A DNA stretch of 64,000 nt from Verrucomicrobiota bacterium (lineage in GTDB: Bacteria > Verrucomicrobiota > Verrucomicrobiia > Opitutales > UBA953): positions 62,001 to 126,000 of the forward strand of contig BGOK01000007.1 of the NCBI GenBank assembly GCA_003569205.1, read 5' to 3'. A program made the position numbers and the translations under genes. The notes under the pieces are model-generated. The model did no database searches, was not told where the DNA came from, and saw nothing but the letters and a program-made list of their open reading frames with translations. Positions within the stretch are counted from its first letter, which is position 1, and each line of letters opens with the position of its first letter. Below, piece by piece: positions 34,312 through 60,139 of the stretch.

Positions 34312-34355
34312 CTTGAACATTTCGCCCGCTTCCGTGTCCTAAAGCCGTCCCCATG
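34308..34355 (+). promoter_or_regulatory. Leader sequence shared with the gene at 27314
   Basis: Second copy of the CCCCCTTGAACATT ... CGTGTCCTAAAG leader, again ending at the ATG. Its conservation in front of two otherwise unrelated genes suggests common control. Confidence 0.4.
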
Positions 34356-39570: not shown

Positions 39571-39656
39571 CTTTTAACTCCCTTTTAAACGTTCTGTCTC
39601 GGACAGCGGATAGGAGTTGGCGGATAGCGGTTAGCGTACCCTGCCATCTTCCCAAT

Positions 39657-39723
39657 CCGTACTCTGTACTCTGTACTCTGTAATCCGTAATCCGCTAGGA
39701 CAACACGCAGTACTGCCCCTACC
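39657..39723. repeat. Heptamer repeat tract plus one REP-like hairpin
   Basis: TACTCTG units (39657-39692) are followed by a minus-strand GTAG-headed hairpin (39696-39723, stem with GTACTGCGTG on the other strand). No coding potential seen in the rest of 39571-39759. Confidence 0.75.
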
Positions 39724-39759
39724 TTTAAATCCCGCCTTATTTCGCCCTGCGAAAAAGAG

Positions 39760-39834
39760 TGGTGCTCCCGTTGGGAGTCGAACCCAAATCGCCGGCTTCG
39801 GAGGCCAGAATTCTATCCATTGAAATACGAGAGC
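39760..39834 (-). tRNA. tRNA-Arg (anticodon CCG)
   Basis: Read on the minus strand: acceptor stem GCTCTCG pairs with CGGGAGC (one G-T pair), discriminator A and encoded CCA; T arm GGGTTCGACTCCC; anticodon stem CTGGC/GCCGG around loop CTCCGAA gives anticodon CCG, which reads CGG. Length 75 with CCA. Confidence 0.92.
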
Positions 39835-39889
39835 GTCTTGTCATTCAAACAAGCGGACTGCAAAGGAGTCAAATACTTCCCGAAAGAGG

Positions 39890-40642
39890 CTATTTGGCGG
39901 ACTTTACCGCACCGGACTTCGCTCCACCTTTGGCATCCTTTAAGGGGTCGGGCTCCGGCTCCATCCGCTCGGGCACCGCCACGATACGCGGGACCTTGCG
40001 ATCAGGGTCGGGCACGATGAACAACAGATGACGCTGGCCAGGTTCTTTCACCCAGCTCGAACGCATCAGCGGTACGCTCTCAGTCTCACCTGCCTCCGGC
40101 GCAACGTCCACGAGTACATGGTAAATATCCCCAGCCTTACCCGGTGGTAGTTGAATCGCGGTCTGGCGGGGGGTGATGACGGCTTGGGCCGTACCGAGCT
40201 TCGAAAAGATTGTGCGCCCGCTGAGGTTAAACCAAAGCACCGCGCCTTCCGGCGCCTTGGTCCGCGAGAACTCGACAGGGAGCATGCGAAACGCCAAGGG
40301 GCCCGCTTCACCCGTCGGGAGCAGCACGACGAGTGGGGCATTCATGCCGTCTGGGATATCCACGAAGGGTGCGTCGGCCGGCAAGGGTTCAGCCTTGGTT
40401 GGTTCCTTGGTGGTCGCATACACCCGCACAAGGCCCGCCGTGAGCGCTAAGCGCTTAGTCGAAATCGAGAGACGCGGTAGATCGACTTCTTTGATTTCCT
40501 TCCCTACTACGAGAAAAACGCTCGCGGGGGCATCGTCCGGGGCCTGCACGTAGAGCAGACGGAGTGACCGAGAGGCTGAACCTTCCTGGGCCGAGACGAT
40601 CGCGGCCCAGCCAGTCAGGAGGAAAAGAAAGGGGCGGATCAT
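39890..40642 (-). CDS. Exported protein of unknown function, coupled to the giant prepilin-like gene
   Basis: A 250-residue protein with a signal peptide (MIRPFLFLLTGWAAIVSAQ). The rest is mostly beta-strand in character (LRLLYVQAPDDAPASVFLVV, VPLMRSSWVKEPGQRHLLFIV) and ends in a Lys/Ala/Gly tail. It overlaps the stop of the upstream prepilin-like gene by four bases (ATGA), so the two are made together; a role in the same surface structure is an inference. No family recognised. Confidence 0.75.
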   Translation of the reverse strand: MIRPFLFLLTGWAAIVSAQEGSASRSLRLLYVQAPDDAPASVFLVVGKEIKEVDLPRLSISTKRLALTAGLVRVYATTKEPTKAEPLPADAPFVDIPDGMNAPLVVLLPTGEAGPLAFRMLPVEFSRTKAPEGAVLWFNLSGRTIFSKLGTAQAVITPRQTAIQLPPGKAGDIYHVLVDVAPEAGETESVPLMRSSWVKEPGQRHLLFIVPDPDRKVPRIVAVPERMEPEPDPLKDAKGGAKSGAVKSAK

Positions 40643-44631: not shown

Positions 44632-44726
44632 CGTGACGTTACAAAATTAAACAACCCCTCGGACCTTGACCAGCGAATTACCCTATTTGAGTGAGAAAGA
44701 CGCCTCCTCTCCCTCCACCCTTCCCC

Positions 44727-46003
44727 TTACTTCGCCGGTAACGTTCGGTCGGCAAAATCGAGGTAATGCTTCCAATCTTCCTCGGTGACATCGTGCTTAC
44801 CGGCACGGTTATGGTAACCGAGGTCCTGCCCGACAGCCACGCCAACGGCGGGCGGCTCGGTCACCCCCAAGCCTTGGCGTCCCAGGAGTTTGAAGACGGG
44901 TTCAGCATACAAGGCCCGAGAAACTCGCCCTTGGGGTCAGCCCAACGGTCTTCGACAGCGCTGGCGACGTAGAGTGGACGGGGAGCCGTCAGCGCGAGGA
45001 CGTAATGCTGGTCCAGCGGCATGCGATCCTCGTGCTCGGCATAGGTGACATACTTGGGCGCGAACCAATGCGGGAAGCCACGGCCTTTATAATATCCAGC
45101 GATGACGCCGACCGTCTCACCAAAGATACGCTTACCGAGCGCGGCACCACCGCAACCAGACTCATTCGAGACGACGAGCGCGAAACGGGTGTCCTGCGCA
45201 CCAGCCCAGAGGGAAGCCTTCCCGAGGCGGGAATGTCCAATCACCGCGACGCGTTTGGCATCGACGGCGGGATTACGCTCCAAGGCGTCGAGCGCGCGTG
45301 AGAGGCCCCACGCCCAAGCGCCGATACAGGCCCAATCGTTGTCAGCACGGACCGCGGCGGGATCCTTCGACGCATAGGCGGCGCGGATGCCTTCCTTCCA
45401 ACCCTCTGGATGATCCGGCTCAAAATCACCGCAGTAGACCGTGGCCAAACCGTACCCACGCGAGACCAGCAGTTCCGCCTGCCAGCGCGACGCCTGGAGA
45501 CCGCGACCTTTGGCGGTGGCGCGGTTGTTCGACGTGACGTCGGCCCACTGCTTCGACACCCACGTCGAAGGCAAGAGCACGGCGGGGTCGTTCACGGTCG
45601 TGTGGTTGCCGCCGAAATTCAGTCCGAGAAACACGGGCGATGGGCCCTTCGCACCGTTCGGCGTATAGAGCAATAAGTCAAAGACGAGGCCGTCCTTGCC
45701 GCTGGGACGTACCTTATACTGCGTGCGCGTGGCCTTGCCACCGAGGGCATTCTTATCCGACTCCACCACCTCGATGATCGGCGCATCTTTCGGCGCAGCG
45801 GCCGCCGGGGTCACCCCGTAGATGTGATCCTGGACCAGCTTCATCACCTCACCTCGGCGCGTCTCGTTCCATTCCTTCGCCGTGGTCACCTTGTGGCCAT
45901 CATTGGCGATCAGCACGTCAGGCACCGTATACGGCGGCACCTTCGCCTCATCATCGATTGCCGGAGGCATGACTGCGGCCAGGAACAGCAGGGGGAGGAG
46001 CAT
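44727..46003 (-). CDS. CE15 glucuronoyl methylesterase, frameshifted near its end
   Basis: An exported alpha/beta hydrolase that would cut the ester between lignin alcohols and 4-O-methyl-glucuronoyl groups of xylan. ATG 46003 starts the signal peptide MLLPLLFLAAVMPPA. The CE15 nucleophile motif is GHSRLGKAS (Ser), the NESGCGGAALGKR block follows, and the final catalytic His should be in FPHWFAPKYV or the C-terminal part. Near 44913-44918 one base is missing: DPKGEFLG continues as LYAEPVFKLLGRQGLGV in the next frame, ending at 44727. Restored length is ~425 residues, normal for bacterial CE15. Confidence 0.88.
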
Positions 46004-46019
46004 AGCGCGACTATGGGGG

Positions 46020-46075
46020 TGGCCAGATACAGTGCAAACGTGCAAATCGGCCTCTCATACGCCTCGCGGGCTACC
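46020..46075 (+). repeat. Intergenic module A, partial copy
   Basis: GGCCAGATACAGTGCAAACG followed by TGCAAAT and a hairpin GCGGGC-TAC-C-GCCCGC. It lies between folA and the CE15 gene. Confidence 0.7.
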
Positions 46076-46568
46076 GCCCGCGCTCCCAAACTTCGAACGT
46101 ATACTTCAAACCATCGACTTCGCCGTCCTTCGACCAGGCAAGTTTAGTGAAGTGCCGATGCCAATCCGCCGGGAAGAAGCGATCACCGGAGAAGTCGCGG
46201 TGGATACGCGTGATGAAAAGTTTGGAGCAGAGCGGCAAGCCTTCGGCGTAGATGCGCTCGCCGCCCGTGATCCAGGTCGGGCCCGTCCACGGCATGGTCT
46301 CCGCGAGAGCCACGGCTGAGGTCAGGTCGGAGACTCGTTCCGCCCCGGGGAAGGCCTTGGCTGGGTCGCGGGAAACGACCACCGTCCCCCGCCCCTCCAA
46401 GGCCTTGCCGAGCTCGGCATAGCAGGCCGGGCCCTCGATCATGACCCCGCCCTTGGTTTGGTCCAAAAACCACGCCAGGTCCTCAGGGATATGCCACGGA
46501 AGGCGCCCTTCCCGACCGATTACGCCGTTTTGGGCGACGGCGACGATGCACTGGATGGGCTTAGCCAC
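46071..46568 (-). CDS. folA: Dihydrofolate reductase
   Basis: A 165-residue DHFR, which makes tetrahydrofolate with NADPH. The motifs IVAVAQNGVIGREGRLPWHIPEDLAWF (quoted in pieces: NGVIG and LPWHIPED with the substrate-binding Asp), VVVSRD and ITGGERIYAEGLPLC (NADPH-binding GG) are all present. The start is GTG at 46568. It diverges from the chaperone gene at 46663. Confidence 0.93.
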   Translation of the reverse strand: MAKPIQCIVAVAQNGVIGREGRLPWHIPEDLAWFLDQTKGGVMIEGPACYAELGKALEGRGTVVVSRDPAKAFPGAERVSDLTSAVALAETMPWTGPTWITGGERIYAEGLPLCSKLFITRIHRDFSGDRFFPADWHRHFTKLAWSKDGEVDGLKYTFEVWERGR

Positions 46569-46662
46569 GCCGCAGGGTTAGGCGGAAATCGGGCCTGTGC
46601 AAGCGCAAGGGCGGGTGCCTCGACTGATTGACAGCGGCCAAAGGGCTTACCAAGGTGGCGGG

Positions 46663-48255
46663 ATGATTACCTGGCTCCAAAACGCCACCTCCAAGCACCA
46701 CCGTCTGATCTTCAGCTTCCTGCTCGTCGTGATTGTCGGCTCGTTCGTCTTCTACGGCTACGGCACGAGTGGCGCAACGGACACCAACACCCGGATATAC
46801 CTCGGGTACGACCTCAACAACGCCAAGCTCCAGACCCGCTACCGTGACTCCCTCGCGTTCGCGAGTTTCACCGGCCAGCGCAACGAAGGTCGTTCCCTCT
46901 TCCAGTATGTCGCCGAGCTCAGCCTTGCCGACTCCCTCCGTATCCCCAATCCTTCCGATAGCGAAGTGCGTAAGCTCGCCCTCCTCGCGACCGCGGGCGC
47001 CGACGGCAAGGAGAACCTCGATAACCTCAACAAGTTCGTCGACTACGCCACCAAGGCCCTCAACACCTCCGACGTCGAGACCCGCGCACGCTTTGAAGGC
47101 TACCTGCAGGACTCCTGGCGCGTAAACAAGTCCGTCGCCCTACTCTCTGGCCCCGGCCACGCCACCACCGCCCAAATCAAGCGCCTCATCCAGCGCGAGA
47201 AGACGCTCTGGACCGTCGACGCGGCGACCTTCTCCAACGCCAACTTCAAGACGACCGTCGCGGACGACGAAGCCAAGGCTAAGGCTGCTTTCGAAGCGAA
47301 CAAGGAAGCCTACCGCCTCCCCGCCAAGGTCGAGGTCACCGTGGTATCCTTCACCAAGACCGAGCCCGACACTTCCGCCATCACCGACGACGAGATTGTC
47401 CTCGAGGGCTACAACGTGGCCGAGAAGTTCAAGTTCGAGCCAGGCAAAATCAAGGAACAGGCGCTCGCTCGCCGTGCGGATATTGAGAAAATCATCCGGG
47501 CCGACCGCGCCCTCCGCAACCTCGCTGGCAAGATGGGCGAAGAGCTCGGCGACAAGTTCCCGACGGAAGCCCACAAGGCCGACTCCAAGGCCTTCAACGC
47601 CTGGCTCACGGCCCAAGGAGCCAAGCTCACGACCCTCGCTGCCTACGAAGTGAACAACCCTCCGACCCAAGCCAAGATCCCTGCCGAAGCCCTCCGCCTC
47701 GCCAGCGAGTTGACTGAAACAGAATGGCGCACGGATATGTTCCGCGCCGAAGACGCCGCCATCTTCGTACTCCTCAACAAGCGCATCGAATCCCGCCTCC
47801 CGGCCTTTGAAGAAGTTAAGGCCCTCGCGCTATCCAACTGGCGCAGCAACGAGCGCGGCCGCCTCCAGGCTGAAGAGCTCAGCCGCATCACTAAGCGACT
47901 CCAAGAAGATGCCGCCGCCGGCAAGGCCTTCACCGAAAGCGCCAAGGCCCTCGGCCTAACGACTTCGACGCCCGCCCCCTTCACCGTCGTGACGACGCCT
48001 GAGAACCTCTCCGGCATCAACGAAAGCACTGGCCAAGTCCTTGAAGTCGCCGGCGTCGGCAAGATCACCACGGGCATTCGCACTGGCAACGGCGACACCG
48101 TCTTCCTCCGCGCCGCCAAGGCCGAGAAGCCGAAGGACGACGCCACCGAAGTTGAAGTCAAGCAACTCGTCGCCCGCTTCACGCAGCGCAACGCCTACTT
48201 CACCGCCCAAGGCCTCGTGCAGGAATTGACGGAAGTGCCGGAAGAGAAGAAATAA
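46663..48255 (+). CDS. PpiD/SurA-like membrane-anchored periplasmic chaperone
   Basis: A 530-residue protein with one N-terminal membrane helix (HRLIFSFLLVVIVGSFVFYGYG) and a long, mostly helical periplasmic part, the layout of PpiD and other SurA_N proteins that help outer-membrane proteins fold. No parvulin-type isomerase domain is evident, although DTSAITDDEI and later segments have the Asp/Thr pattern of the linker. The ATG at 46663 is preceded by AAGGTGGCGGG, which includes a ribosome-binding-like AGGTGG, and starts at the membrane anchor. Assigned by architecture and weak similarity. Confidence 0.65.
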   Translation: MITWLQNATSKHHRLIFSFLLVVIVGSFVFYGYGTSGATDTNTRIYLGYDLNNAKLQTRYRDSLAFASFTGQRNEGRSLFQYVAELSLADSLRIPNPSDSEVRKLALLATAGADGKENLDNLNKFVDYATKALNTSDVETRARFEGYLQDSWRVNKSVALLSGPGHATTAQIKRLIQREKTLWTVDAATFSNANFKTTVADDEAKAKAAFEANKEAYRLPAKVEVTVVSFTKTEPDTSAITDDEIVLEGYNVAEKFKFEPGKIKEQALARRADIEKIIRADRALRNLAGKMGEELGDKFPTEAHKADSKAFNAWLTAQGAKLTTLAAYEVNNPPTQAKIPAEALRLASELTETEWRTDMFRAEDAAIFVLLNKRIESRLPAFEEVKALALSNWRSNERGRLQAEELSRITKRLQEDAAAGKAFTESAKALGLTTSTPAPFTVVTTPENLSGINESTGQVLEVAGVGKITTGIRTGNGDTVFLRAAKAEKPKDDATEVEVKQLVARFTQRNAYFTAQGLVQELTEVPEEKK

Positions 48256-48289
48256 GCGAAGGAAGTCGGAGACTTCCGACAAGGGGACT

Positions 48290-48450
48290 GGTACAGACTA
48301 GATGCAGTGCAAACGTGCAAAGGTGGAAATGTGCACAGGTGAAGAAGCGAGGGGACTGGTGGGCTGGAGTATGGTTGGCTAGGGGTTGTGTGGCGGCTTC
48401 GCCGCCTGCTATCTTTCCGCTTTCCCGTTTCGCTCCCTTTGCACGACTTC
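48290..48450 (+). repeat. Intergenic module A, copy 4
   Basis: Contains GTGCAAACGTGCAAAGGTGG, GAAGAAGCGAGGGG (here after, not before, the GTGCAAAG block), TTGGCTAGGGGTTGTG and hairpin GGCGGC-TTC-GCCGCC. Confidence 0.85.
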
Positions 48451-48459
48451 GCATCTCAG

Positions 48460-48773
48460 GTAGGGGCGCGACTGCGTCGCGTCCGTTCGCCTGTAGATGT
48501 CCGCAGCTCCACGCCTCTGCATGGAGGTAGGGTTGGCACTGCGTGCCAACCTAGCTGCCCCTGCATCGTCCAACCGCCAGCCGCTAACCGCCACCACCCG
48601 ATCTGGGTAGGGGCAAGGCTTCGCCTTGACCTCCTCCGCAGGAGGGCGCGGTAAACCACGCCCCTACCCAATGACGGTGGTAGCGGATAGCGTCCCCTAC
48701 CTCCTTCCCAATCCGCACTCTGTAATCTGTACTCTGTAATCCCCGAGGACAGCACGCGGTACTGTCCCTACCT
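48460..48773. repeat. REP hairpin cluster between the chaperone gene and glnS
   Basis: At least five hairpins headed by GTAGGG: plus strand at 48460-48485 (stem GCGAC/GTCGC, loop TGC), 48527-48551 (stem GGTTGGCAC/GTGCCAACC, loop TGC) and 48607-48631 (stem GGCAAGGC/GCCTTGACC); minus strand at 48641-48668 and 48747-48772. A short TACTCTG heptamer tract lies at 48716-48742. No gene is seen in 48256-48933. Confidence 0.85.
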
Positions 48774-48779
48774 CAAGGC

Positions 48780-48934
48780 ATAAGCGGCCGCAGGCCGCGG
48801 CCATTCCCCCAGCCTTGTTTAACATTTTGCACCTTTCCACCTTTGCACCTTTGCACTGCATCTAGCCCATCCCCCACCCCCCTATCCCCTATCACCCTGT
48901 TCCCTATCACCCTGTTCCCTATCACCCTGTTCCC
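48780..48934 (-). repeat. Inverted partial module A plus a 15-bp tandem repeat
   Basis: The minus strand shows GTGCAAAGGTGCAAAGGTGG and a hairpin GCGGCC-TGC-GGCCGC. It is followed by three tandem units of CTATCACCCTGTTCC (48889-48933), which reach the glnS stop codon. Confidence 0.8.
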
Positions 48935-50604
48935 TACGCCTTCGCCTTCGCCCAAGAGTCCTTGAGCGTGACGGTGCGGTTGAAGACGGGCTGGCCGGAC
49001 TGGGAATCTTTGGTGTCGGTGCAAAAGTAACCGATGCGCTCGAACTGCACGCGGGTACCGGGCGCCACCGCGAGGAGCGCAGGCTCGACCTTGCCGCGAA
49101 TAGCCTGCAGCGAAGTAGGATTCAACAGGGTGCGCCAATCGGAGCCTTCCGGAATGTGTTTCATGTCCTCCTGCGCGAAGAGGCGGTCGTAGAGGCGGAC
49201 TTCGACATCGCCGGCCTGCGCTTCGGAGACCCAGTGGATCGTGCCCTTGACCTTACGTCCGTCCGGAGAGTCGCCGCCGCGGGTGGCGGGATCATAGGTG
49301 CAACGGACTTCGACAACCTTACCAGCGGCGTCCTTGACGCAACCAGTGCAGGTGACGAAGTAGCCCCAGCGGAGACGGACTTCCTGGCCGGGGGTGAGGC
49401 GGAAATACTTCTTCTCCGGGATCTCCATGAAGTCCGCCCGCTCGATGAGCAGGGTCTTGGAGAACGGTACCTGGCGGCTGCCCGCGGCTGGGTCTTCAGG
49501 GTTGTTCTGGGCCTCGAGGAGTTCAACCTGACCTTCCGGGTAGTTCTCGATGACGAGGCGGACGGGGTCCAGCACCGCCATGAAGCGGGATGAGGTCTTG
49601 TTGAGGTCGTCGCGCACGGCGTGCTCGAGGAGCGCGACGTCCGACAGCGAGTTATGCTTGGTGATGCCGACGGTCTCGCAGAACTTACGGACGGCGGCCG
49701 GCGTGTAGCCGCGGCGACGCAGGCCCGAGATGGTCGGCATGCGGGGATCGTCCCAACCGGAAACGCGCTTCTCTTGCACGAGCTCGAGCAGGTTGCGCTT
49801 GGACATGATGGTGTAGGTCAGGTTGAGGCGGGCGAACTCGATCTGCTGCGGCTTGGCCGGGGTATCCAGTGTGCGCAGGAGCCAATCGTAGAACGGACGG
49901 TGCACCTCGAACTCAAGCGTGCAGATGGAATGGGTGATGCCTTCGTACGCGTCCTCGAGCGGGTGGGCGTAGTCGTACATCGGGTAGACGCACCACTTGT
50001 CGCCGGTGTTGTGGTGGTGGGCCTTGCGGATGCGGTAGATGACCGGGTCGCGCATGTGCATGTTCGGCGACGCCATGTCGATCTTGGCGCGCAGCACGGC
50101 CTTGCCTTCGTTGTATTCGCCGCGGGTCATGCGCTCGAACGCCGCGAGGTTGTCCTCCACCGACGCATCGCGCGTCGGGCTGGCCTTGCCGCCGTGCTTC
50201 TCGTCGCCGTGGTATTCCCGAATCTGCTCCTGCGAAAGGAAGCAGACGTACGCCTTGCCGAGCTTGATCAGTTGGATGGCGTCCGCATGCATGCGGTCGA
50301 AGTAGTTCGAAGCCTGGTAGTAGTGCTGCCCCCAGTCGAAACCGAGCCAGCGCACGTCTTCCTGGATCGAATCGACATACTCGACCTCTTCCTTGGTCGG
50401 GTTGGTGTCGTCCATACGGAGGTGGCAACTGCCCTGATACTCCAGCGCGAGGCCGAAGTTGAGGCAGATGGACTTCGCGTGGCCGACGTGCAGGTAGCCG
50501 TTCGGCTCTGGCGGGAAACGCGTGATGACCTTGACGTGCTTCCCGGCCGCAAGGTCGGTGTCGATGATTTGCTGGATGAAGTGGCGATGCGCTTCGGTAG
50601 ACAT
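48934..50604 (-). CDS. glnS: Glutaminyl-tRNA synthetase
   Basis: A 556-residue class I synthetase that charges tRNA-Gln with glutamine. The HIGH-type motif is [16 protein letters not shown] and the KMSKS-type motif [21 protein letters not shown] and the C-terminal anticodon-binding beta-barrels ([19 protein letters not shown]) match GlnRS. Start at 50604 gives the typical short leader [14 protein letters not shown]. It lies 11 bases after gltX, so both enzymes of this pathway are co-expressed, and Gln-tRNA can be made directly. Confidence 0.95.
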
Positions 50605-50615
50605 TGCAAAAGTGG

Positions 50616-51980
50616 TTAAGCGGCGTAGGTCTGGAGACGGGCGAGCGTGGTGTCGCGACCGAGGACGCGCAGGACGCCGAGGAGGTGGGCGCCACCGCCC
50701 TGCCCGGAGATCGCGAAACGCGCGGGCGCGAAGTAGTCGGTCGGCTTGCGGTTGTTGGCGGTACCGACCGCGGCAAAAGCGGCTTCGAGCGCGGGCTCGG
50801 TCCATTCGGCGGCCTCGAGCGCGGGCAAGAGCTCGCGGATGCGGGCCACCGGATCGCCGCCCTTCTTGGTCAGGTTGGCGACCGCGCCTTCGTCCTTCTT
50901 GAACTCGGCCGTGAAGAAGAAGCCCATGAACTCAGGCAAGTGCTCGAGCGAGTTCACCTTCTCCTGCACGATGCCGAGGACCTCGGCGAGACGGGCGTCG
51001 GACACCGTGGCATCGATGACCTTGGTCTCGAGCAGGATCGGACGCGCCAACGTGGCGAACTCCGCCGCAGGCAGGCCGCGCAGGGTCTGGGCGTTGACGT
51101 GCGACATCTTGCGCTCGTCGAAGCGGGCGTTGGACTGGTGTACCGCAGAGATCTCGAATTGGCGGACGATTTCGTCGATAGGGAGGACTTCCTTGCCGTC
51201 GGCGGGCGTCCAGCCGAGGAGGCAAAGGTAATTGCGCACGGCGGCCGGCAGGTAGCGACGCTGCTGGTATTCCTCGATGAGGGCGCCGCGGTCGCGCTTG
51301 GACATCTTGCCTGGGCCGTCGGTCTTGAGGATGAGCGGGATGTGGGCGTACTTCGGCGGCTCGACGCCGAAGGCCTTGAAGAGCTCGAGGTGCTTCGACG
51401 TGTTGGACAAGTGGTCCTCGCCGCGGATCACGTGGGTGATCTGCATCTCGATGTCATCGACCACGTTCACGAAGTGAAAGACCGGCTCACCGTTGGAGCG
51501 GAAGATCACGAAGTCACGGTCCTCGGCGCGCTCGACGCGGCCGCGCACCATATCATCGAGCACCATCGGAGCGGCGTCGACCTTCTCGATCTCCCTCTTC
51601 AGGTGATCATCGAAGACCGTGGAGCGGGCGCCCTCGAGGCGGAGCCACCAGGCGCCGTCCTTTTCGTAGGCGCGGCCCTTGGCGGCGAGCTCCTTCAGCT
51701 TCGTCTGATAAAGCTCGGTACGCTGCGACTGGAAGTACGAGCCAAAAGCGCCGCCGACCTCGGGACCCTCGTCCCAATCCATCCCCAGCCAGCGCATGGA
51801 GTCCATGATCACTTGCAGGAAAGCCTCGGAGTTGCGCTCCTTGTCCGTGTCCTCGATGCGCAGGATGAACTTGCCGCCCGTGTGGCGGGCATAGAGCCAG
51901 TTGAATAAGGCCGTACGGGCGCTTCCGATGTGGAAGAAACCGGTGGGACTAGGAGCGAAGCGGACGCGGACTTGGGACAT
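50616..51980 (-). CDS. gltX: Glutamyl-tRNA synthetase
   Basis: A 454-residue class I synthetase that attaches glutamate to tRNA-Glu. The HIGH motif is [13 protein letters not shown] and the KMSKS motif is [17 protein letters not shown] and [11 protein letters not shown] are also typical. ATG 51980 chosen because the protein begins [14 protein letters not shown], the standard start; the frame upstream has no homology. Length is slightly below the usual 470-490. First gene of the gltX-glnS pair. Confidence 0.95.
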
Positions 51981-52193
51981 GAAAAACGTGGTTGCCAGCG
52001 GGAAAACCCCACCGAAGCGATAAGCCAGCATTTGGACGCAGAAACCCCTCTGGGGGAAGAGGAAAGTAGCCTGACATCCACCGCTTCGAGTGCGGAATAC
52101 CGCCGGAACGCTGTAAACCCGCCATCCCAACCAATCTCCAACCTTGACGCACACCCCTCCCCGCCTTTGATACGCCCCTCAGCTGGTCAACAA

Positions 52194-52282
<89 letters not shown>

Positions 52283-52437
52283 CTGGGACCGGTTCGATAA
52301 ACTTACCTAACCAGGCAAGTCCAACGGACCCTTTTTGCTCACCGGAGGGATGAGAACCCTTGGGTTCGGTGAGCGCCTTTAGGCCGAACAGACGATGCCA
52401 AAGGCATCGGGCCGGAGGCCTGAAGCGAAGCGCAATC
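52283..52437 (+). other. 155-bp structured segment between tRNA-end repeats
   Basis: No coding sequence. It contains complementary segments: CTCACCG with CGGTGAG, GATGCC-AAA-GGCATC and GGCC-GGA-GGCC. It could be the remnant of a small element inserted at the tRNA end, a processed leader, or a set of terminators. Confidence 0.4.
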
Positions 52438-52457
52438 AATCCCTCCCTCTCCGCCAG
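52438..52457 (+). repeat. 20-bp direct repeat, second copy (att-like)
   Basis: Exact copy of the tRNA-Ser 3' end repeat at 52263-52282, with no tRNA attached. Confidence 0.9.
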
Positions 52458-52520
52458 GAAACTTAGATGCAAGGGTACTGGGTTATCGGGTTGTGGGTAT
52501 CGTGAATGGCTCTGCCTCGG

Positions 52521-52622
52521 GTAGGGTCAGCACTGCGTGCTGACCTAGTTGCCACTAAGGTAGGGGCAAGGCTATGCCCTTGCCCTCCACCCTAGGAGGG
52601 CGCGGTAAACCACACCCCTACC
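52521..52622. repeat. REP hairpin cluster upstream of the ecotin gene
   Basis: Three hairpins with GTAGGG feet: 52521-52545 (stem GGTCAGCAC/GTGCTGACC, loop TGC), 52560-52584 (stem GGCAAGG/CCTTGCC) and, on the minus strand, 52595-52622 (GGGCGCGG/CCACACCC). Confidence 0.85.
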
Positions 52623-52669
52623 ACATTTGCACCATTGCAGGGTATCAGCCAAAGGCACAGCATCGCAGG

Positions 52670-53168
52670 ATGCTTCGCCTGCTACCCCTCGGCCTCCTTG
52701 CCCTGCTGACGTTCTTTAGCTCAGCCACACTCCACGCCCGCCCGAGTGACGCGAGTTCTTGGCAGAAGGCCTACCCGGCGGCGGAGAAAGGGATGAAGCG
52801 CATCGTGATTCACCTCGACGCGCAGAAAGACGAGTTCTCCTGGAAGGTGGAATTAATCGTGGGCAAGACGTTGGAGACCGACGGGGTCAATCGCGTCGCA
52901 CTCATGGGCAAAATCGAGGAACGTCCCGTCGAAGGCTGGGGCTACACGTTCTACCCGCGCCGAGATCAAGTCCGACGGCATGATTTCAACCCGTATCGGG
53001 GTCGACCCGAACCAGCCGAAGGTGAAGCAGTTCGTCACGCTCATGCCCTACGGGCCAGTCCGCTATAACAGCCGCCTCCCCATCGTCGTCTACATCCCCG
53101 AAGGCTACGAGGTGCGCTACCGTTTCTGGAAGGCCGAAGAGACCACCCGCACCGGCGAAGAGGGATAA
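52670..53168 (+). CDS. Ecotin-family serine protease inhibitor, frameshifted
   Basis: A secreted inhibitor of trypsin-fold proteases. ATG 52670 starts the signal peptide ([23 protein letters not shown]). Ecotin blocks follow: [46 protein letters not shown], then, after a one-base shift near 52955-52961, [14 protein letters not shown] and [27 protein letters not shown] (shown in parts). Restored length is ~166 residues. The two cysteines that join the reactive loop in E. coli ecotin are both absent, and the loop around GMIST differs. It may protect against predator or host proteases. Confidence 0.88.
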
Positions 53169-53184
53169 CTAATTTTACATTACA

Positions 53185-55656
53185 ATGCGCCTCCTGCCGT
53201 CCGCCCTGCTCTGCCTAGCGTCCACCTTCGCTAACGCGATCCCGACCAACCCGGACATCGATTTCGCCGGACCGCCTCCGGGCAAGGCGGAGATTACCAA
53301 GCCCGCTGAGCATACGATCGGACTGCAGAATAGCGTCCTGTCCGCCAGTTGGTCCTTCCGCGACGGACAGCTGCGTCCAGCCTCGCTGCGCAATGGCATC
53401 ACTGGTCAAGCATTCGACCAATCCCAAGCCGAGGTCTTCCGCCTGACCACTAAGCCCACCGCCCAAGGCGACGGGAGCTTCCCAGTCGAGGTCGAGCTCA
53501 CCACGAACAAGGTCATCGTCCGCGTCGGACAAGACGGCAAGGGTTGGGCCACGCTCGGCGAATTCCCGCGCGCAGATTTCCCCGGCGAACCCAAGCTCAT
53601 CCGCGTCGGCAAGATGAACCTCAAGGCCCTCGCCAAGGACAGTGGTGGCGAAGCGGGCGACGTCGGCGAAAGCCGCGTCTTCAACCTCCAACCCGCCGGC
53701 GAGCGCGACGCCTATGCCTTCAAAGCCCCAGCCAACCGTGCTTCCGTCCAAGAATACCCATGGAAGGCCGGCACAACGCGTTTCAGCGCCAGCATCGATA
53801 AGGGCACCGACAGCGCGATGTCCTGGAGCCCAGCCATCGCGCTCATCTGGGAAGAGGGCGTAAGCTTTATCCTCGTCGGGGTCCGTGATAAGCGCGGGAC
53901 GTTCAACCTCACCACCGCCAAGGGTGAGCAGATGAAATCCCCGCAGCTCTCGCCCTTCCCTGCAGGCGACCTGGCCGCCTCAAGCTTCACCCTCACGTCC
54001 CCACCCAAGGCTACCGCGATGACGGACGGCCAAGCCATCGAAGCCGAACTGACCTCTCCGCAAGGCGTCCGCGTCCGCTGGCGCGCCGAACTCCGCAACG
54101 GCGCCCACTACCTCCGCCAAACCATTGCACTCGCCTCACCTAAGCAGGCCTTCGCGCTGCAAGGCGTCGAGTTCGCTGACCTGCGACTACCCAACCTCAC
54201 CACCATCGGGACGGCCCCCGGTTGCCCCGTGGCGGGCTCTGGCTTCTTCGCGGGCGTGGAGATGCCCGGCGCGACCAACCGGACAGGAGCCACGGGTGCA
54301 CGCATTGCCTTCGCCTGCGCGCTCGAACTCAACCCGACCCAGTCCTACACCTTCGGTTCCGTCATCGGCGTCTCCGGCGGCCAGCTCCGCCGCTCCTTCC
54401 TGCGGTACATCGAACGCGAGCGAGCCCGCCAATCGCAGCCATTCCTGCATTACAACTGCTGGTACGACCTCGGGTACAACGTCGATGAACCCAAGATGCT
54501 CGACGTCGTTCGCGCCTTCGACACCGAGCTCGTGAAGAAGCGTGGCGTGCCGGTGCGCTCCTACCTCGTCGACGACGGCTGGGATAACCCTGGTAAGGGC
54601 CTGTGGATTGAAAACACCAAGCGCTTCCCGCAAGGCTTGGCCGGCACCAAGGCCAAGATGGAGCCCTTTGGTGCGCACCTCGGTATCTGGATCTCGCCGC
54701 TCGGCGGCTATGGCGGCGACAAGGAACGCACCGCGCACGCCCAGAAGCTCGGGCTCATCCCCGAAGGCGCCAAGCTCGACCTCTCGTATCCGAAATACCG
54801 TCAGTGGTTCACCGACCGCTGCCTCGAGCTCATGCGCGAAGGCGGCGTGAACTCTTTCAAGTGGGACCGCGCCGGCGACGGCGTCAGCCCGCACTTCATG
54901 GCACTCCTCGATGTCGCTAAACGCCTGCGCGTCGAGAATCCCGAGGTCTTCATCAACGTCACCGTCGGCACGTGGCCCTCGCCATTCTGGCTCAACCACG
55001 TCGATACCACTTGGCGTATGCATAGCTCCGACGTCGGCTGGACTGGTAAGGGCGACGACCGCGAGAAGTGGCTGACCTTCCGCGATGGCTATTGCCACAA
55101 GCTCTTCGTCCAAGCCTCGCCCCTCTACCCGCTCAACTCCGCGATGCACCATGGCGTCGTCCACGGCCGTTCCTTCCAAGGCGATAAAGTCGGCAAGGCT
55201 GGCAACGACCTGAAGAACGAGGTGCGTTCGTATTTCGCCAACGGTGCCGCACTGCAGGAGCTCTACCTCACGCCCTCGATGATGACCCCAGCGGCCTGGG
55301 ACCACGTCGCCGCTTCGGCCAAGTGGGCCCATGCCCATGCGGACGTCCTGCGCGATGCGCACTGGGTCGGTGGCGACCCGCTGAAGCTCGAGCCGTACGG
55401 CTACGCCGCTTGGAACCCACAAGCCGCAACGCTCATGCTGCGCAACCCCGATGACCAGCCACGGACGATTGAATTGGACGCGGACGTCGTCTTCGAGCTA
55501 CCGAACCAGAGCCGTACAGCCACCCCGGCCTTCGACCTCCGCTCGCCCTACGCCGACCAGCGCCTGCGCACCCTACGCCTCGTGGCGGGGACCAAGGTGA
55601 CCGTCACGCTCGAGCCATTTGAAGTCTTGGTCTTCGACACCGGCGCTGGTAAGTAG
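53185..55656 (+). CDS. Secreted GH36-like glycoside hydrolase
   Basis: An 823-residue exported protein with a signal peptide (MRLLPSALLCLASTFANA). A beta-sandwich N-terminal region (~20-400) precedes a TIM barrel with SYLVDDGWDNPGKGLW, GIWISPLGGYGG and GVNSFKWDRAGDG, where the Asp after KW is the expected nucleophile of the GH36/GH27-like clan, and a C-terminal beta-domain with LRNPDDQPRTIELD. Family members are mostly alpha-galactosidases or alpha-N-acetylgalactosaminidases; the exact specificity is not assignable. Located 16 bases after the ecotin gene and 5 bases before the permease. Confidence 0.78.
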   Translation: MRLLPSALLCLASTFANAIPTNPDIDFAGPPPGKAEITKPAEHTIGLQNSVLSASWSFRDGQLRPASLRNGITGQAFDQSQAEVFRLTTKPTAQGDGSFPVEVELTTNKVIVRVGQDGKGWATLGEFPRADFPGEPKLIRVGKMNLKALAKDSGGEAGDVGESRVFNLQPAGERDAYAFKAPANRASVQEYPWKAGTTRFSASIDKGTDSAMSWSPAIALIWEEGVSFILVGVRDKRGTFNLTTAKGEQMKSPQLSPFPAGDLAASSFTLTSPPKATAMTDGQAIEAELTSPQGVRVRWRAELRNGAHYLRQTIALASPKQAFALQGVEFADLRLPNLTTIGTAPGCPVAGSGFFAGVEMPGATNRTGATGARIAFACALELNPTQSYTFGSVIGVSGGQLRRSFLRYIERERARQSQPFLHYNCWYDLGYNVDEPKMLDVVRAFDTELVKKRGVPVRSYLVDDGWDNPGKGLWIENTKRFPQGLAGTKAKMEPFGAHLGIWISPLGGYGGDKERTAHAQKLGLIPEGAKLDLSYPKYRQWFTDRCLELMREGGVNSFKWDRAGDGVSPHFMALLDVAKRLRVENPEVFINVTVGTWPSPFWLNHVDTTWRMHSSDVGWTGKGDDREKWLTFRDGYCHKLFVQASPLYPLNSAMHHGVVHGRSFQGDKVGKAGNDLKNEVRSYFANGAALQELYLTPSMMTPAAWDHVAASAKWAHAHADVLRDAHWVGGDPLKLEPYGYAAWNPQAATLMLRNPDDQPRTIELDADVVFELPNQSRTATPAFDLRSPYADQRLRTLRLVAGTKVTVTLEPFEVLVFDTGAGK

Positions 55657-55661
55657 CCCGG

Positions 55662-56429
55662 ATGCTCGACTGGCTGCACGCCAACACCCTCCTGCCCGCT
55701 AACGGGTGGATCCTGCTCCTCGCCCTCTTCGGGGCGCTGTGCATCGGGCTCTCGAAGTCTGGCCTCGCCGGCACGGCGACCTTGAACGTCGTCCTCATGG
55801 CGCAGATCTTCGGCGCCAAGCCGTCGGTCGGACTTGTCCTGCCGTTGCTGATCGTCGCGGACCTCCTCGGCTTCCTCATCAACCGCAAGGGTGGCAGTTG
55901 GCGGCAGATCGTGCCCATGATGCCGCCTGCCATCGCCGGCGTCATCGTCGGGTGGCTACTCTTAGATCGCATCGATAACTCCGTCGCGCGGGTGGTCATC
56001 GGCTGGATCATCCTCGGACTCCTCGCTTTCAACTTCGTCCTGCGCAAACGCCGGGAGCAGTTCCTGGCGCTCACGGAGCATCGCGGTTTTGCGCAAGGCA
56101 TGGGCTTCCTCGCCGGGACTGTCACGATGATCGCCAATGCCGCTGGCCCCGTCATGACCGTCTTCCTGCTCTCGCAGCGCCTCGAGAAGCGCGAGCACCT
56201 CGGCGTCTTCTGCCGATTCTTCCTTTTCATCAACCTCTTCAAGTTACCCTTCAGCAACTCCGTCGGACTCATCAGCGGCCCTTCGCTGCTGACGAACCTC
56301 GTGCTCCTGCCAGGCGTCTTCCTCGGCATCTACCTGGGCTGGCAAATCCTTAAGCGCATCCCGCAGGACGCCTTCGAGAACACCCTCGCCATACTCACCG
56401 CCTTCGCGGCGATTTGGTTAATACTCTAA
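55662..56429 (+). CDS. TauE/SafE (TSUP) family membrane permease
   Basis: A 255-residue inner-membrane protein with about eight hydrophobic segments. The paired motifs ALCIGLSKSGLAGTATL near the start and GFLAGTVTMIANAAGPVMTVFLL in the middle are the two TSUP repeats with conserved small residues, and CRFFLFINLFKLPF follows. Members move sulfite, sulfonates or other organosulfur anions; the substrate here is unknown. It follows the GH36-like gene by five bases. Confidence 0.87.
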   Translation: MLDWLHANTLLPANGWILLLALFGALCIGLSKSGLAGTATLNVVLMAQIFGAKPSVGLVLPLLIVADLLGFLINRKGGSWRQIVPMMPPAIAGVIVGWLLLDRIDNSVARVVIGWIILGLLAFNFVLRKRREQFLALTEHRGFAQGMGFLAGTVTMIANAAGPVMTVFLLSQRLEKREHLGVFCRFFLFINLFKLPFSNSVGLISGPSLLTNLVLLPGVFLGIYLGWQILKRIPQDAFENTLAILTAFAAIWLIL

Positions 56430-56431
56430 AG

Positions 56432-56724
56432 GTAGGGACAGCGTCGAGAGAGGGGATGGGGGATGGGGAGTTACAGCGGCGTTGCCCCATGAAACCAGGT
56501 AGGGCGACCACTGCCGTGGTCGCCTAGTTGCATCACTTTTAAAGACGCAGGTTAGGCGGGCGTGTAGCCTATCATTTGGTAGGGTCCACCTTAGGAGGGC
56601 GCGGCAAACCACGCCCCTACCGGATGAAGGATGTAGCGGATAGCGGATGGCGCTACCGGGAGACAAACCATCGGGCGACCCCAAGTCCGTTTGCGAACGG
56701 ACGCGACGCAGTCGCGCCCCTACC
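56432..56724. repeat. REP hairpin cluster, left arm of inverted pair around hemH
   Basis: From 56499 to 56724 the order is: GTAGGGCGACCAC hairpin (plus, 56499-56525), spacer with GGCGGGCGTGTAGCCTATCA, minus-strand hairpin (56594-56621), then a minus-strand GCGAC/GTCGC hairpin (56699-56724). The whole block reappears in reverse order and orientation at 57913-58136. Confidence 0.85.
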
Positions 56725-56743
56725 GATAACAGGCTTCGCCGTC

Positions 56744-57770
56744 TTACCGATGATCGGGCTTCCAGGTCGCGACGCGGTTGACGAGATACTTCACGTAGAT
56801 GTCCGAATCGTTAAGGCACGGGATTTGCTCAAAGTGCTCGCCGCCGGCATGGATGAAGGTTTCCTTACCTTCTTCGCGGATTTCCTCGAGGGTCTCGAGG
56901 CAGTCAGAGGTAAAGGCTGGGCACATGACCAAGAGATTCTTGGTGCCTTCTTCCGGTAAAGCCTCGAGGCGTTTGTCGGTGTAAGGCGAGACCCACTTCT
57001 CGCCCGCTAAGCGCGACTGGAAGGAGAGCTCATATTGCGATTCCTTGAGGCCCGCAGCCGCCACGAACAGACGCGTCATCTCAACGCACTGGTGGCGATA
57101 ACAGGTGGCCTGACAAGGGCTGTAATGGGAGCAGCAATCCTTCATCTTCATGCAATGGGCCTTCGAAGGGTCCCCCTTGCGTAAATGACGCTCGGGCAGG
57201 CCGTGGTAAGAGAACAACAACTTATCGAAGGGCTTGCTCAACCAAGGCTGCGCGGATTCGACCAGGGCGTCGATGTACGCCGGGTCGTTGTAGAAGGGTT
57301 GCAGGACGTGGTACTTCACGCCCGGGGCCAGGCGAGCGAGCTCTTCCTGGACTTTCACGACGACGGTCTCGTAGGAGGACATCGCGTAATGCGGGTACTG
57401 CGGCCATCACGAACAAATCGTCGATCCCCGCAGCCACGACCTGCGCGACGGCTTCCGCACAGGAAGGGGTGCCATAGCGCATGCCCATGATGACGGGCAG
57501 GCCGGTCGCCTTTTCCATTTTAGCGCGGAGCTTATCGGTCGTGACGACCAAGGGCGAACCTTCAGGGGTCCAGACGCTCGCGTAAGCGGCGGCACTCTTC
57601 TTCGGACGGGTCCGAAGGATGATGCCTTCCAAAAGGACCCAGCGTAAAGCGGCCGGATAATCGATGACGCGGTCATCGTTCAGGAATTCACGCAGGTAGT
57701 TACGCACGTCAGGCACGGAAGTGCTCTTCGGCGAACCAAGATTCAGCAGCAGGATACCTTTACGGGACAT
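56744..57770 (-). CDS. hemH: Ferrochelatase, frameshifted
   Basis: Inserts Fe2+ into protoporphyrin IX in the last step of haem synthesis. The N-terminus is [20 protein letters not shown] with the family motif [12 protein letters not shown] and, after the frame change, [14 protein letters not shown] (catalytic His in SYHGLP) and [14 protein letters not shown] (catalytic Glu) are present. At about 57400-57406 one base is missing, where FVMA should continue as [14 protein letters not shown]. Restored length is ~342. Haem would serve the PSD1 cytochromes. It lies between inverted REP arms and ~450 bases from hemE. Confidence 0.93.
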
Positions 57771-57829
57771 GGGGGAAGGAGGAAGAGAAATGCAGGGGAA
57801 GTCAAATGATAGGGGTAGAGGGGGGATGG

Positions 57830-58136
57830 GTAGGGGCAGCACCGCGTGCTGCCATAGGGTGTGTGAGGCGGTTGGCGGCGAGCGGTTTGGAAGATTCAGC
57901 AAGCGGAATATGGTAGGGGCGCGACTGCGTCGCGTCCGTTCGCGAACGGGCTTGGGGTCGCCCGATGTGGCTTATCTCCTGATAGGGCCATCGACGTTCG
58001 CGAACGCGAACGGGTAGGGGCGTGGTTTACCGCGCCCTCCTACGGAGGACCCTACCAAATGATAGGCTACACGCCCGCCCAACTAGTGTCTTCAAAAGTG
58101 ATACAACTAGGCGATCACGGCAGTGATCGCCCTACC
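57830..58136. repeat. REP hairpin cluster, right arm of inverted pair around hemH
   Basis: Hairpins at 57830-57854 (GGCAGCAC/GTGCTGCC), 57913-57938 (GCGAC/GTCGC), 58013-58040 (GGGCGTGG/CCGCGCCC) and minus strand 58110-58136 (GGCGATCAC/GTGATCGCC). The region 57913-58136 is the reverse complement of 56499-56724 with scattered changes. No gene in 57771-58222; 58160-58205 is a CCCCATC-rich low-complexity tract. Confidence 0.85.
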
Positions 58137-58222
58137 TTGTTTCATGAGTCTACGTATCTGTATCCCCCATCCCCCATCCCCAATCCCCCATCCCCTATCC
58201 CCTACCCGCCACCACCCTCTCC

Positions 58223-59249
58223 TTACTCCTTCGTCACTTCATCCACGACCGCCTGGAAGGTCTCAATCCGCGCGTCAGGGGTGATGCCGTGACCGAGGTT
58301 GAAGATGTGGCCCGGGTCGCCGGCATTATCCTGTAGGATGGCACGGACGGCCGCCGCGGCGGCGGCTGGTTCACCTGGCATGTACGTCGGGTCCAAGTTC
58401 CCCTGTAGGCAAATCGGACGGCCCGCTAGGCCACGGACCTGCGAGAGGGGCATGGTCCAGTCAACGCCAAGGCAAGGGACGCCGGTACGGGCCAAGGCCT
58501 CCGCCTGCGGGGACTTGCCCTTGGCGTAAAGGATTACGGGGGCGGCCTTCGGGAGGCGCTCCAAGACGGCGCGGATGTAGCGCAGTGAGAACTCCTCGTA
58601 ATCAGCCCCGTCCAAGGCACCGGCCCAGCTGTCAAAGATCTGGATGGCGTCGGCACCGGCGGCGAACTGCCGGGTGAGGTATTCGGCGACCGCGGTGGCC
58701 AGCGTCTCGAGGAGACGGTGCATCATGCGGGGGTTCGACTTCACCAAGGCCTTGGTCTTCGGAAAATCTTCCGAGCCGCCGCCTTCGACGAGGGTAACAC
58801 GCGAGCGTCCAAGGTGAACCAGCAAACCCTAAGAGGGCCTTGTTCATTCCCAATTCCTTGCGCAACAGGCGCAGGGCTTCGTAGACGTAATTGAGACGCT
58901 CCGCAGCGCCGTTGACGTCCAGCGTGGCGAGGTCGGCTTCCGTCGAAAGCGCACGCTCCATGGCGATGCCGCCTTCGTCGCGGAAACGGTAACCAACGCC
59001 GAGGGCTTCGGGAATGACTAGAATATCGCTGAAGAGAATCGCCGCATCAAGCTGCGCGAAACGACGGAGCGGCTGCAAGGTCACCTCGACCGCGAGGTCG
59101 GGCGTGCGTACCATGGTCAGGAAGTCGGACTTCGCCTTGAGCGCACGGTACTCGGGCAGGTAACGGCCAGCCTGACGCATGATCCAGACCGGCGGGCGGC
59201 CATGGGGCTGGCGTTGGAGGGCGGCGAGGAAGCGGTCGCGGGAGTTCAT
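58223..59249 (-). CDS. hemE: Uroporphyrinogen decarboxylase, frameshifted
   Basis: Converts uroporphyrinogen III to coproporphyrinogen III in haem synthesis. The N-terminal signature VWIMRQAGRYLPEYR, AILFSDILVIPEALG (catalytic Asp), GFAGSPWTLACY and later GHGITPDARIE are diagnostic. One extra base in the GGG run at 58791-58793 (plus strand) throws the frame out after SPWTLACY; dropping it gives LVEGGGSEDFPKTKAL. Restored length is ~342. Its ATG overlaps the hemF stop (TGATG). Confidence 0.93.
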
Positions 59250-60139
59250 CAAGACTCCTTCACCCAATCCTGTGGTTTCAGATAATGCGAGATTAGTTCT
59301 GCCTCCGGGGTGCCGGAAACGGGCTGGTGGCAGTAACGCCACTGCACGCGGGGCGGCAGGGACATCAAAATCGACTCGGTTCGGCCGCCGGACTGCAGGC
59401 CAAAGATGGTCCCACGGTCAAAGACGAGGTTGAATTCGACATAGCGGCCACGGCGGATCTCCTGCCACTCGGTTTCCCGGGCCCCATAGGGGGTCTGGGC
59501 GCGGCGGCGGAGGATTTCGGCGTAGGCCGGGCCATAGGCATCGCCGACCTTCTGCATGAGCGCAAAGGCCTGTTCGAAGCCACCCTCGGTGAAGTCGTCG
59601 TAGAAGATACCGCCGATGCCGCGCGACTCGCCGCGGTGCTTCAGCAAGAAGTACTCGTCGCACCAGGCCTTGAACTTGTCGTAGTTCGCGCCCGTGGCCG
59701 TCTTCGCGGCTTGGTGCCAGGAACGGGCGTCTTCTTCGAAACCGTAATAAGGCGTCAGGTCGAAGCCACCGCCCATCCACCAAATCGGGTCAGGTCCATC
59801 GGTGCAGAAGAAGCGTACGTTCATGTGCGACGTCGGCGCGTAAGGATTCAGCGGGTGGTGCACGACCGAGACGCCCATGGCGCGGAAGCCACGGCCCGCG
59901 AGTTCGGGGCGGCTATGCGTGGCGGACGGCGGGAGCTTGCTGCCACGGACATCCGAAAAGGCCACCCCACCCTTTTCCATAACCGTGCCGCCGGAGATCA
60001 CGCGCGTGCGCCCGCCACCGCCTTCGGCCCGGGTCCATTCATCGGTGAGGTACTTGGCCTTGCCGTCGACTTCCTCGATGAGGCCGCAGATACGATCCTG
60101 CAGGCCAACCAGGTAGCTCCTGACGAGTTCGGGATTCAT
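59249..60139 (-). CDS. hemF: Oxygen-dependent coproporphyrinogen III oxidase
   Basis: Oxidises coproporphyrinogen III to protoporphyrinogen IX with O2. HemF signatures are [32 protein letters not shown] (shown in part), [14 protein letters not shown] and [21 protein letters not shown] (in part). Length is 296, normal. The start is the ATG at 60139 ([12 protein letters not shown]). The use of HemF implies an aerobic life style. First gene of hemF-hemE. Confidence 0.94.

What the first reader, a model, noticed from the sequence alone, without database searches (positions are those of the whole stretch)
48460..58136. A REP-element family with GTAG feet and several co-varying stems
Four clusters (48460-48773, 52521-52622, 56432-56724, 57830-58136) and single copies at 39696 and 25705 hold hairpins that begin with GTAGGG. 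Loops are constant (often TGC) while stems change on both sides at once: GGTTGGCAC/GTGCCAACC, GGTCAGCAC/GTGCTGACC, GGCAGCAC/GTGCTGCC, GCGAC/GTCGC, GCGACCAC/GTGGTCGC, GGCGATCAC/GTGATCGCC, GGGCGTGG/CCGCGCCC. A conserved GTAG before a palindrome is the known mark of REP sequences handled by RAYT (TnpA_REP) transposases. The number of different stem types packed together in both orientations is unusual.
Basis: partly seen in the sequence, partly recalled or inferred. Interest (0 to 1): 0.75.

Follow-up and report, generated by a model that had tools for sequence, protein, structure and literature searches.

The report
Layered REP islands with matched transposases
The hairpins are many related families of tiny mobile DNA palindromes (REPs), each matched in sister genomes to its own small transposase gene, and in this bacterium they pile up between genes in a strikingly one-way order.

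Summary
The window carries GTAGGG-footed hairpins (12 GTAG-headed found, 0-4 per resampled copy) whose stems change on both sides at once. They are REP elements of an Opitutae-like draft genome that holds at least 168.

I examined 50 of 55 short RAYT transposase genes found in the genus; all 50 have GTAGGG hairpins within 200 bp. Each RAYT subfamily (17 by my labels) has its own stem and loop. All 76 RAYT pairs with protein distance under 0.35 share an identical hairpin; 0 of 35 pairs within one genome do. The changing stems are thus REP classes that follow their transposases.

This genome holds REPs of at least five classes, but no matching RAYT was found (85% complete).

Less expected: clusters mix classes in the order +++---. 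All + hairpins precede all - hairpins in 41 of 42 mixed clusters; same-strand neighbours differ in class in 67 of 70. The hemH-hemE gap is 433 bp here, 32-38 bp in 12 of 14 measured sisters.

REP-RAYT matching is known elsewhere; the ordered mixed islands are the variant.

The parts
39695..39723 (-). single REP, imperfect stem, F-like (GCAGTAC-TGC)
   Evidence: R1 match 42.7 bits; 2 mismatches from class F
48459..48487 (+). REP class J (GCGCGAC-TGC)
   Evidence: R1 37.3 bits; stem and loop as beside RAYT G010C7
48526..48554 (+). REP TTGGCAC-TGC (one pair from class A; no RAYT found with this exact stem)
   Evidence: R1 44.2 bits
48606..48668 (.). class D double-foot REPIN: GCAAGGC hairpin, middle hairpin, GCGTGG hairpin
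   Evidence: R1 at 48606 + and 48641 -; same layout beside RAYT G032C127
48744..48772 (-). REP, B-like (ACAGTAC-CGC)
   Evidence: R1 42 bits; 2 mismatches from class B
52520..52548 (+). REP class A (TCAGCAC-TGC)
   Evidence: R1 47.3 bits; exact stem and loop of REPs beside RAYTs G002C37, G026C63, G016C32
52559..52622 (.). class D double-foot REPIN
   Evidence: R1 at 52559 +; closing foot on the - strand at 52621
56498..56527 (+). REP, K-like (CGACCAC-TGCC)
   Evidence: R1 42.3 bits; 2 mismatches from class K
56578..56621 (.). truncated class D element with GTAGGG feet at both ends
56696..56724 (-). REP class J
   Evidence: R1 37.3 bits
57829..57857 (+). REP class F (GCAGCAC-CGC)
   Evidence: R1 41.1 bits
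57912..57940 (+). REP class J
   Evidence: R1 37.3 bits
58013..58056 (.). truncated class D element; most of it, with 12 further bases, lies in a 50-nt gap (58019-58068) against the same spacer of sister G031
58107..58136 (-). REP CGATCAC-TGCC, partner of the one at 56498 with a one-pair stem change
   Evidence: R1 41.6 bits; 3 mismatches from the nearest RAYT-flanking REP, so unassigned
56459..58175 (.). two REP islands as inverted relatives on either side of hemH (arms 56459-56621 and 58013-58175)

Best explanation
The hairpins are REP elements of several classes. Each class is recognised, as single-stranded DNA, by its own small HUH/tyrosine transposase (RAYT, TnpA_REP) through a shared GTAGGG foot and a class-specific stem and loop. 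A RAYT and its REPs change together, so stems change on both sides at once while foot and fold stay fixed. Shown here by sequence: class-by-class matching of RAYT and REP across the genus; a large difference in REP content of one gene border (hemH-hemE) between sister genomes; outward-pointing feet in mixed-class clusters. Inferred: that the RAYTs cut and paste the REPs (biochemistry known for relatives), and that islands grow by later insertions of other classes beside or between resident REPs in the same orientation, which yields +++---. In this genome the matching RAYTs are lost, or missing from the draft, and the REPs remain as orphans.
For: Covariation of stems. At least 168 copies in the own genome. 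Short RAYTs: MPDHxH motif, invariant tyrosine and NP motif in the ten aligned; NCBIfam REP_Tyr_transpos matches 10 of 10; closest solved structure by sequence profile 4er8, E. coli TnpArep, E 2.4e-15. GTAGGG hairpins within 200 bp of 50 of 50 RAYTs examined (55 found, 5 partial ones dropped; two hairpin sets entered by eye); identical REP shared by 76 of 76 RAYT pairs with distance under 0.35 and by 0 of 35 same-genome pairs; Mantel r 0.693, 0 of 5000 permutations. Own REPs: 81 of 190 match a RAYT-flanking REP exactly in stem and loop, 177 of 190 within 2 mismatches. Genomes with a class B RAYT hold more exact class B REPs: median 21 (n 7) against 4.5 (n 48), p 9e-5 (counts; the gene's own flanking REPs are included). 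hemH-hemE gap 32-38 bp in 12 of 14 measured sisters, 433 bp here. Order + before - in 41 of 42 mixed clusters, permutation mean 13.6, maximum 25.
Against: No matching RAYT found in this genome. For class A, genomes with the RAYT do not hold significantly more exact REPs (median 3.5, n 4, against 1.0, n 51; p 0.09); for class B, two genomes counted as without the RAYT still hold 29 (G007) and 25 (G062) copies. The commonest stem here, TTGGCAC (32 exact copies; 13 of 55 genomes), stands beside none of the 50 RAYTs. RAYT and REP could match partly because both sit on one inherited locus. No movement was observed. The order rule is weaker beside RAYT genes: 45 of 70 mixed clusters (permutation mean 25.8, maximum 39), and 7 of 10 at sister hemH loci.
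Confidence: 0.88

Rival explanations
1. Host-kept hairpins: transcription terminators, mRNA stabilisers or gyrase sites, kept by selection on the fold; covariation reflects selection for pairing only, and transposases are incidental.
For: The four window clusters lie between genes, two of the four between converging genes; near-perfect stems; REPs elsewhere have such roles (introduction passages of PMC6006769 and PMC3733652).
Against: The exact stem and loop follow the RAYT subfamily and not the host: 0 of 35 same-genome RAYT pairs share a REP. The hemH-hemE border has an island here and only 32-38 bp in 12 of 14 measured sisters. A fixed GTAGGG foot on one side is not needed for a terminator.
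Confidence: 0.07
2. Palindrome correction: template switching turns imperfect stems perfect and makes them change on both sides, without any enzyme choosing the stem.
For: One-pair steps such as TCGGCAC to TTGGCAC, and chimeric REPs at L062 4424 and 2572, suggest exchange or correction within palindromes.
Against: It does not explain identical stems and loops beside related RAYTs in different genomes (76 of 76 pairs) or classes that also differ in loop.
Confidence: 0.05
3. The +++--- order comes only from duplication or recombination of older islands (or from counting simple REPINs), not from an insertion rule.
For: Two islands in the window are inverted relatives; 15 of the 42 mixed clusters are plain +- pairs, which is what a REPIN is; the innermost +- pair is same-class in 19 of 28 against a shuffled mean of 11.6 and maximum of 19, and 14 of the 19 are class D.
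Against: 26 of 27 mixed clusters of three or more also obey; same-strand neighbours differ in class in 67 of 70, unlike tandem duplication; the class composition varies from island to island.
Confidence: 0.35

Closest known systems
REP classes and cognate RAYTs of Pseudomonas and Stenotrophomonas (Nunvar 2013, PMC3686654; abstract and section 6 read)
   Same: GT[A/G]G foot, 8-9 bp perfect stem (stenotrophomonads), REP class defined by the neighbouring RAYT gene, several classes per lineage (22 and 13), doublets (REPINs), abundance said to depend on the RAYT.
   Different: Other phylum; the classes here share a longer foot GTAGGG with GG/CC as first pairs; this genome keeps REPs of at least five classes with no matching RAYT found.
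GTAG-tagged REPs incl. Opitutus terrae (PMC3733652; passages read)
   Same: GTAG REPs are already reported as highly enriched in O. terrae (Verrucomicrobia); different families coexist there, and heterodimers are known.
   Different: [quoted passage not shown] here same-strand neighbours are 70 of 114 adjacent pairs and tail-tail 1 of 114.
E. coli TnpA_REP (PDB 4er8) and the REPtron (PMC8266576; abstract and first part of the discussion read)
   Same: HUH plus tyrosine core, similar length, GTAG foot, gene flanked by REPs; stem and loop recognition.
   Different: Perfect 9-bp stems without bulge, as in the second kind of REP in that paper; about 60 bits of profile similarity.
TnpA_Y1 subclass 2.4 double-foot REPs (PMC6006769; passages read)
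   Same: Class D here has GTAGGG at both ends of one compact unit, like the double-foot type.
   Different: Subclass membership of these RAYTs was not tested.

Membership tests
REP element (GTAG type) | GTAG foot directly 5' of a short palindrome | tested here: met
REP element (GTAG type) | high copy number, mostly between genes | tested here: met
   at least 168 copies; position between genes checked for the four window clusters only; the longest frame of the ecotin gene starts inside the REP at 52574, but its Pfam match begins at residue 65
REP element (GTAG type) | cognate RAYT in the same genome | tested here: not met
   own genome: only a long RAYT with other palindromes; draft 85% complete. 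Met in sister genomes
REPIN | two REPs in inverted orientation, feet outward | tested here: met
   +- is 43 of 114 adjacent pairs, -+ 1 of 114
RAYT / TnpA_REP | HUH motif and catalytic tyrosine | tested here: met
   invariant MPDH.H and Y123 in the ten aligned (one row is a fragment); that this tyrosine is the catalytic one is inferred from the alignment to 4er8
RAYT / TnpA_REP | NCBIfam NF047646 REP_Tyr_transpos above cut-off | tested here: inconclusive
   10 of 10 match, best 2e-24; the one member whose score is shown has 74.6 bits, cut-off 80
RAYT / TnpA_REP | gene flanked by REPs of one class | tested here: met
   50 of 50 loci examined have REPs within 200 bp; some loci end at a contig edge, so one side only could be seen, and a few also hold a neighbour REP of another class
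RAYT / TnpA_REP | cleaves and joins its own single-stranded REP | not testable with these tools
   needs purified protein

The most novel reading that the evidence does not exclude
REP islands here are self-ordering: because the classes share the GTAGGG foot, a resident REP marks a strand-specific landing site for RAYTs of any other class, so newcomers of different classes insert head-to-tail in the resident's orientation and islands grow outward-pointing in layers, a readable insertion record like nested transposons.
Probability: 0.25. Interest if true: 0.65.

Novelty: new variant of a known kind. Interest (0 to 1): 0.5.

Why it matters
One genus offers 17 RAYT subfamilies (my labels) with distinct stems and loops, several differing by single base pairs (TCAGCAC, ACAGCAC and GCAGCAC with three loops). 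That is a natural panel for working out how these single-strand transposases read a hairpin; for perfect-stem REPs the contacts are still a matter of speculation (PMC8266576, discussion). The one-way, mixed-class islands suggest a target rule that could be tested directly. The genome also shows large REP loads persisting where no matching transposase was found.

Tried and rejected
Simple nesting of whole REPINs inside older REPINs was my first model. It fits many islands (class D is the innermost +- pair in 14 of 28) but not G010 beside hemH, where two classes interleave, so I keep only the weaker claim about orientation. A RAYT 'recognition code' by mutual information between protein columns and stem or loop bases was not convincing with 16 classes: a few columns (52, 84 and 115 for the second loop base, 104 for the last stem pair, 52 and 84 marginally for two other features) exceed the mean shuffled maximum, most do not. 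The link of copy number to RAYT presence holds for class B, not for class A. The motif TGYHTY just upstream of the foot is in 32 of 98 outermost REPs (class D dropped) against 1.1% of random positions; a narrower form, TGCMTC, is in 11 of 113 outermost and 13 of 41 inner REPs. It was picked from the same data and may be a decayed older REP tail. Rfam finds only two tRNAs in 39000-58500. R1 was trained on window hairpins, so classes with other loops (C, E, H, L and so on) are under-counted in this genome. Five partial RAYT hits (G033 twice, G062 C107 twice, G069 C129) were left out of the 50. The hemH comparison used 15 sister loci; matches to more distant hemH genes, partial ones and the second G001 copy were left out.
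Full report
What is in the window. The four clusters and the copy at 39696 are real GTAGGG-footed hairpins. The mechanical scan finds 12 GTAG-headed hairpins against 0 to 4 in 20 first-order resampled copies; 25705 is only a degenerate remnant. On nine aligned hairpins, 97.5% of stem cells pair and six of nine pairs have changes on both sides, while slid versions of the stem drop to 32-54% paired. The window lies in a draft genome of 2.23 Mb, 34 contigs, 85% complete. Relatives of its one Y1-transposase match are in Opitutae records at up to 96% identity, so the host is most likely an Opitutae bacterium (inferred).

Genome-wide. A covariance model of the nine hairpins finds 168 matches in the own genome, a lower bound because only 150 of 947 first-look candidates were scored. 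Among 57 genomes (own and relatives), 36 have matches at E <= 0.001: 35 of the 37 of the same genus (own included) and 1 of 20 others. On 34 own stretches (window included; 700,724 bp, 20 of them chosen because they held matches) there are 190 matches at E <= 0.01.

The transposases. The own genome has one Y1_Tnp match, flanked by a different palindrome. In sister genomes weak Y1_Tnp matches in frames of about 150 aa sat between these very hairpins. A profile of ten such proteins found 55 matches at E <= 2.2e-10 in 28 of 55 genus genomes and only the distant long gene in the own genome. By sequence profile the closest solved structure is E. coli TnpArep, 4er8. Matches at E <= 1e-15 occur in 40 of 177 genomes drawn from the order, 26 of 76 genera.

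The match of gene and hairpin. I examined 50 of the 55 and dropped five partial hits. All 50 have GTAGGG hairpins within 200 bp; two with imperfect stems (G007C118, G036C4) were entered by eye. For comparison, 3.8% of random 840-bp windows in own stretches not chosen by hits hold one, and 13.5% in stretches chosen by hits (this background is from the own genome, not the sisters). RAYT pairs closer than 0.35 share an identical stem and loop in 76 of 76 cases; pairs at 0.35-0.5 in 10 of 133; at 0.5-0.6 in 2 of 523; beyond, 0 of 493. Of 35 pairs within one genome none shares. Mantel r is 0.693, and no permutation of 5000 reaches it. Hence the stem follows the gene, not the host. By my labels there are 17 classes. 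Examples: A TCAGCAC-TGC, B ACAGCAC-CAC, F GCAGCAC-CGC, J GCGCCAC/GCGCGAC-TGC, D GCAAGGC/GCGTGGC, E CTGACCA-CCCT, C GCGTGCG-GCC.

Back to the window. Of the 190 own REPs, 81 match a RAYT-flanking REP exactly in stem and loop, 177 within two mismatches: A 60 (mostly the one-step relative TTGGCAC), D 41, J 28, B 23, F 19, K 3, and one each of G, I and P; 13 are unassigned. None of their RAYTs was found here. TTGGCAC, with 32 exact copies here and present in 13 of 55 genomes, stands beside none of the 50 RAYTs. Copy number follows the gene for class B (median 21 with the RAYT, 4.5 without; p 9e-5), though two genomes counted as without hold 29 and 25; for class A there is no significant link (p 0.09).

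Gain and loss at one place. I compared 15 sister loci with a full-length hemH segment at least 93% identical to the one here. hemH and hemE are 32-38 bp apart in 12 of the 14 where both could be placed, and 327-433 bp apart in this genome and in G031 and G001, the two sisters with an identical hemH segment. The G001 gap holds a run of N and what look like remains of REPs. Within that gap, 50 bases (window 58019-58068, most of the class D element plus 12 bases) are absent from G031, and the gap begins right after the GGTAGG foot; insertion and deletion cannot be told apart. At the other end of hemH the sisters carry different classes (N in G026; E and B in G064; J, E, B and F in G010; J and N in G015) and no REP close to the gene in G014 and G059; but the neighbouring gene tauE was found there in only one of 15 sisters (G001), so that border is not fully comparable. 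Gain or loss of REPs is therefore shown at the hemH-hemE border; who did it is inferred.

The order. With 300-bp linkage there are 42 mixed-strand clusters, and in 41 every + hairpin precedes every - hairpin (permutation mean 13.6, maximum 25 in 20,000); the exception looks like two complete clusters side by side. Adjacent pairs: ++ 23, +- 43, -- 47, -+ 1. Fifteen of the 42 are plain +- pairs; among the 27 larger ones, 26 obey. Same-strand neighbours are of different class in 67 of 70; of the 41 within 60 bp of each other, 21 are 36-40 bp apart. A scan without the model gives 33 of 34 in the same own stretches (window left out), 22 of 25 in sister loci fetched by the model, 7 of 10 at sister hemH loci, and 45 of 70 beside RAYT genes (56 loci, several fetched twice), where -+ junctions are 27 of 137. 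So the rule is strong in this genome and partial elsewhere.

How it most likely works. RAYTs of relatives cut and rejoin their own single-stranded REP, with the GTAG foot and the stem and loop as determinants (PMC8266576: abstract and first part of the discussion read). The same chemistry here would make each class a separate mobile population, and change of a RAYT and its REPs together gives stems that change on both sides. The one-way order needs an added rule. My preferred but unproven one is that newcomers insert next to resident REPs in the same orientation, since the classes share GTAGGG. Copying and recombination of older islands is the main rival.

What is known. REP classes matched to RAYTs are described in Pseudomonas and Stenotrophomonas (PMC3686654: abstract and section 6 read). 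[quoted passage not shown] Double-foot REPs are in PMC6006769 (passages read). My paper searches (listings seen) showed nothing on ordered mixed-class REP islands or on RAYT classes in this group, but they cover only the open-licence library and I looked at the listed papers only. The elements are ordinary in kind; the class richness in one genus and the ordered mixed islands are the variant.

Noticed in passing
window 56744-57790 and 58223-59342: hemH and hemE each read in two overlapping frames; the own hemH open frame is 220 aa, while most sisters with full-length matches show about 340-510 aa. Assembly indels or real frameshifts.
   Followed up: partly
L001 1320-2460 (G000:C8:89078-90218): A long RAYT-like gene in two frames (171 + 136 aa) lies between copies of another palindrome, GGGGTCAGGCCGCTCC / GGAGCGGCCTGACCCC. 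Related GGGGTCAGGCACCATCGCG palindromes sit inside some REP islands.
   Followed up: no
window 25548-25690, 34172-34315, 39409-39552, 48296-48438: Another dispersed repeat of about 143 nt holding GTGCAAAGGTGCAAA-like text, 85% and 97% alike in two pairs; three of the four lie within 150 bp of a REP or REP remnant.
   Followed up: no
window 31917-32018, 39656-39708, 48705-48743: Arrays of a 7-base unit (TCTGTAC / TCTGTAA) recur, twice close to REPs.
   Followed up: no
L062 2572 and 4424: Chimeric REPs with the left arm of one class and the right arm of another, suggesting recombination at the loop.
   Followed up: no
own genome, TTGGCAC-TGC REPs: The most abundant exact stem here (32 copies), with 14-55 copies in G031, G017, G009, G020, G022 and G032, stands beside none of the 50 RAYTs examined.
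   Followed up: partly
L143 1067-1761 (G053, another family of the order): A broken RAYT-like frame lies between GTAGGG hairpins ACGCCAC-TCC and ACGGCTC-TCC outside the genus.
   Followed up: no
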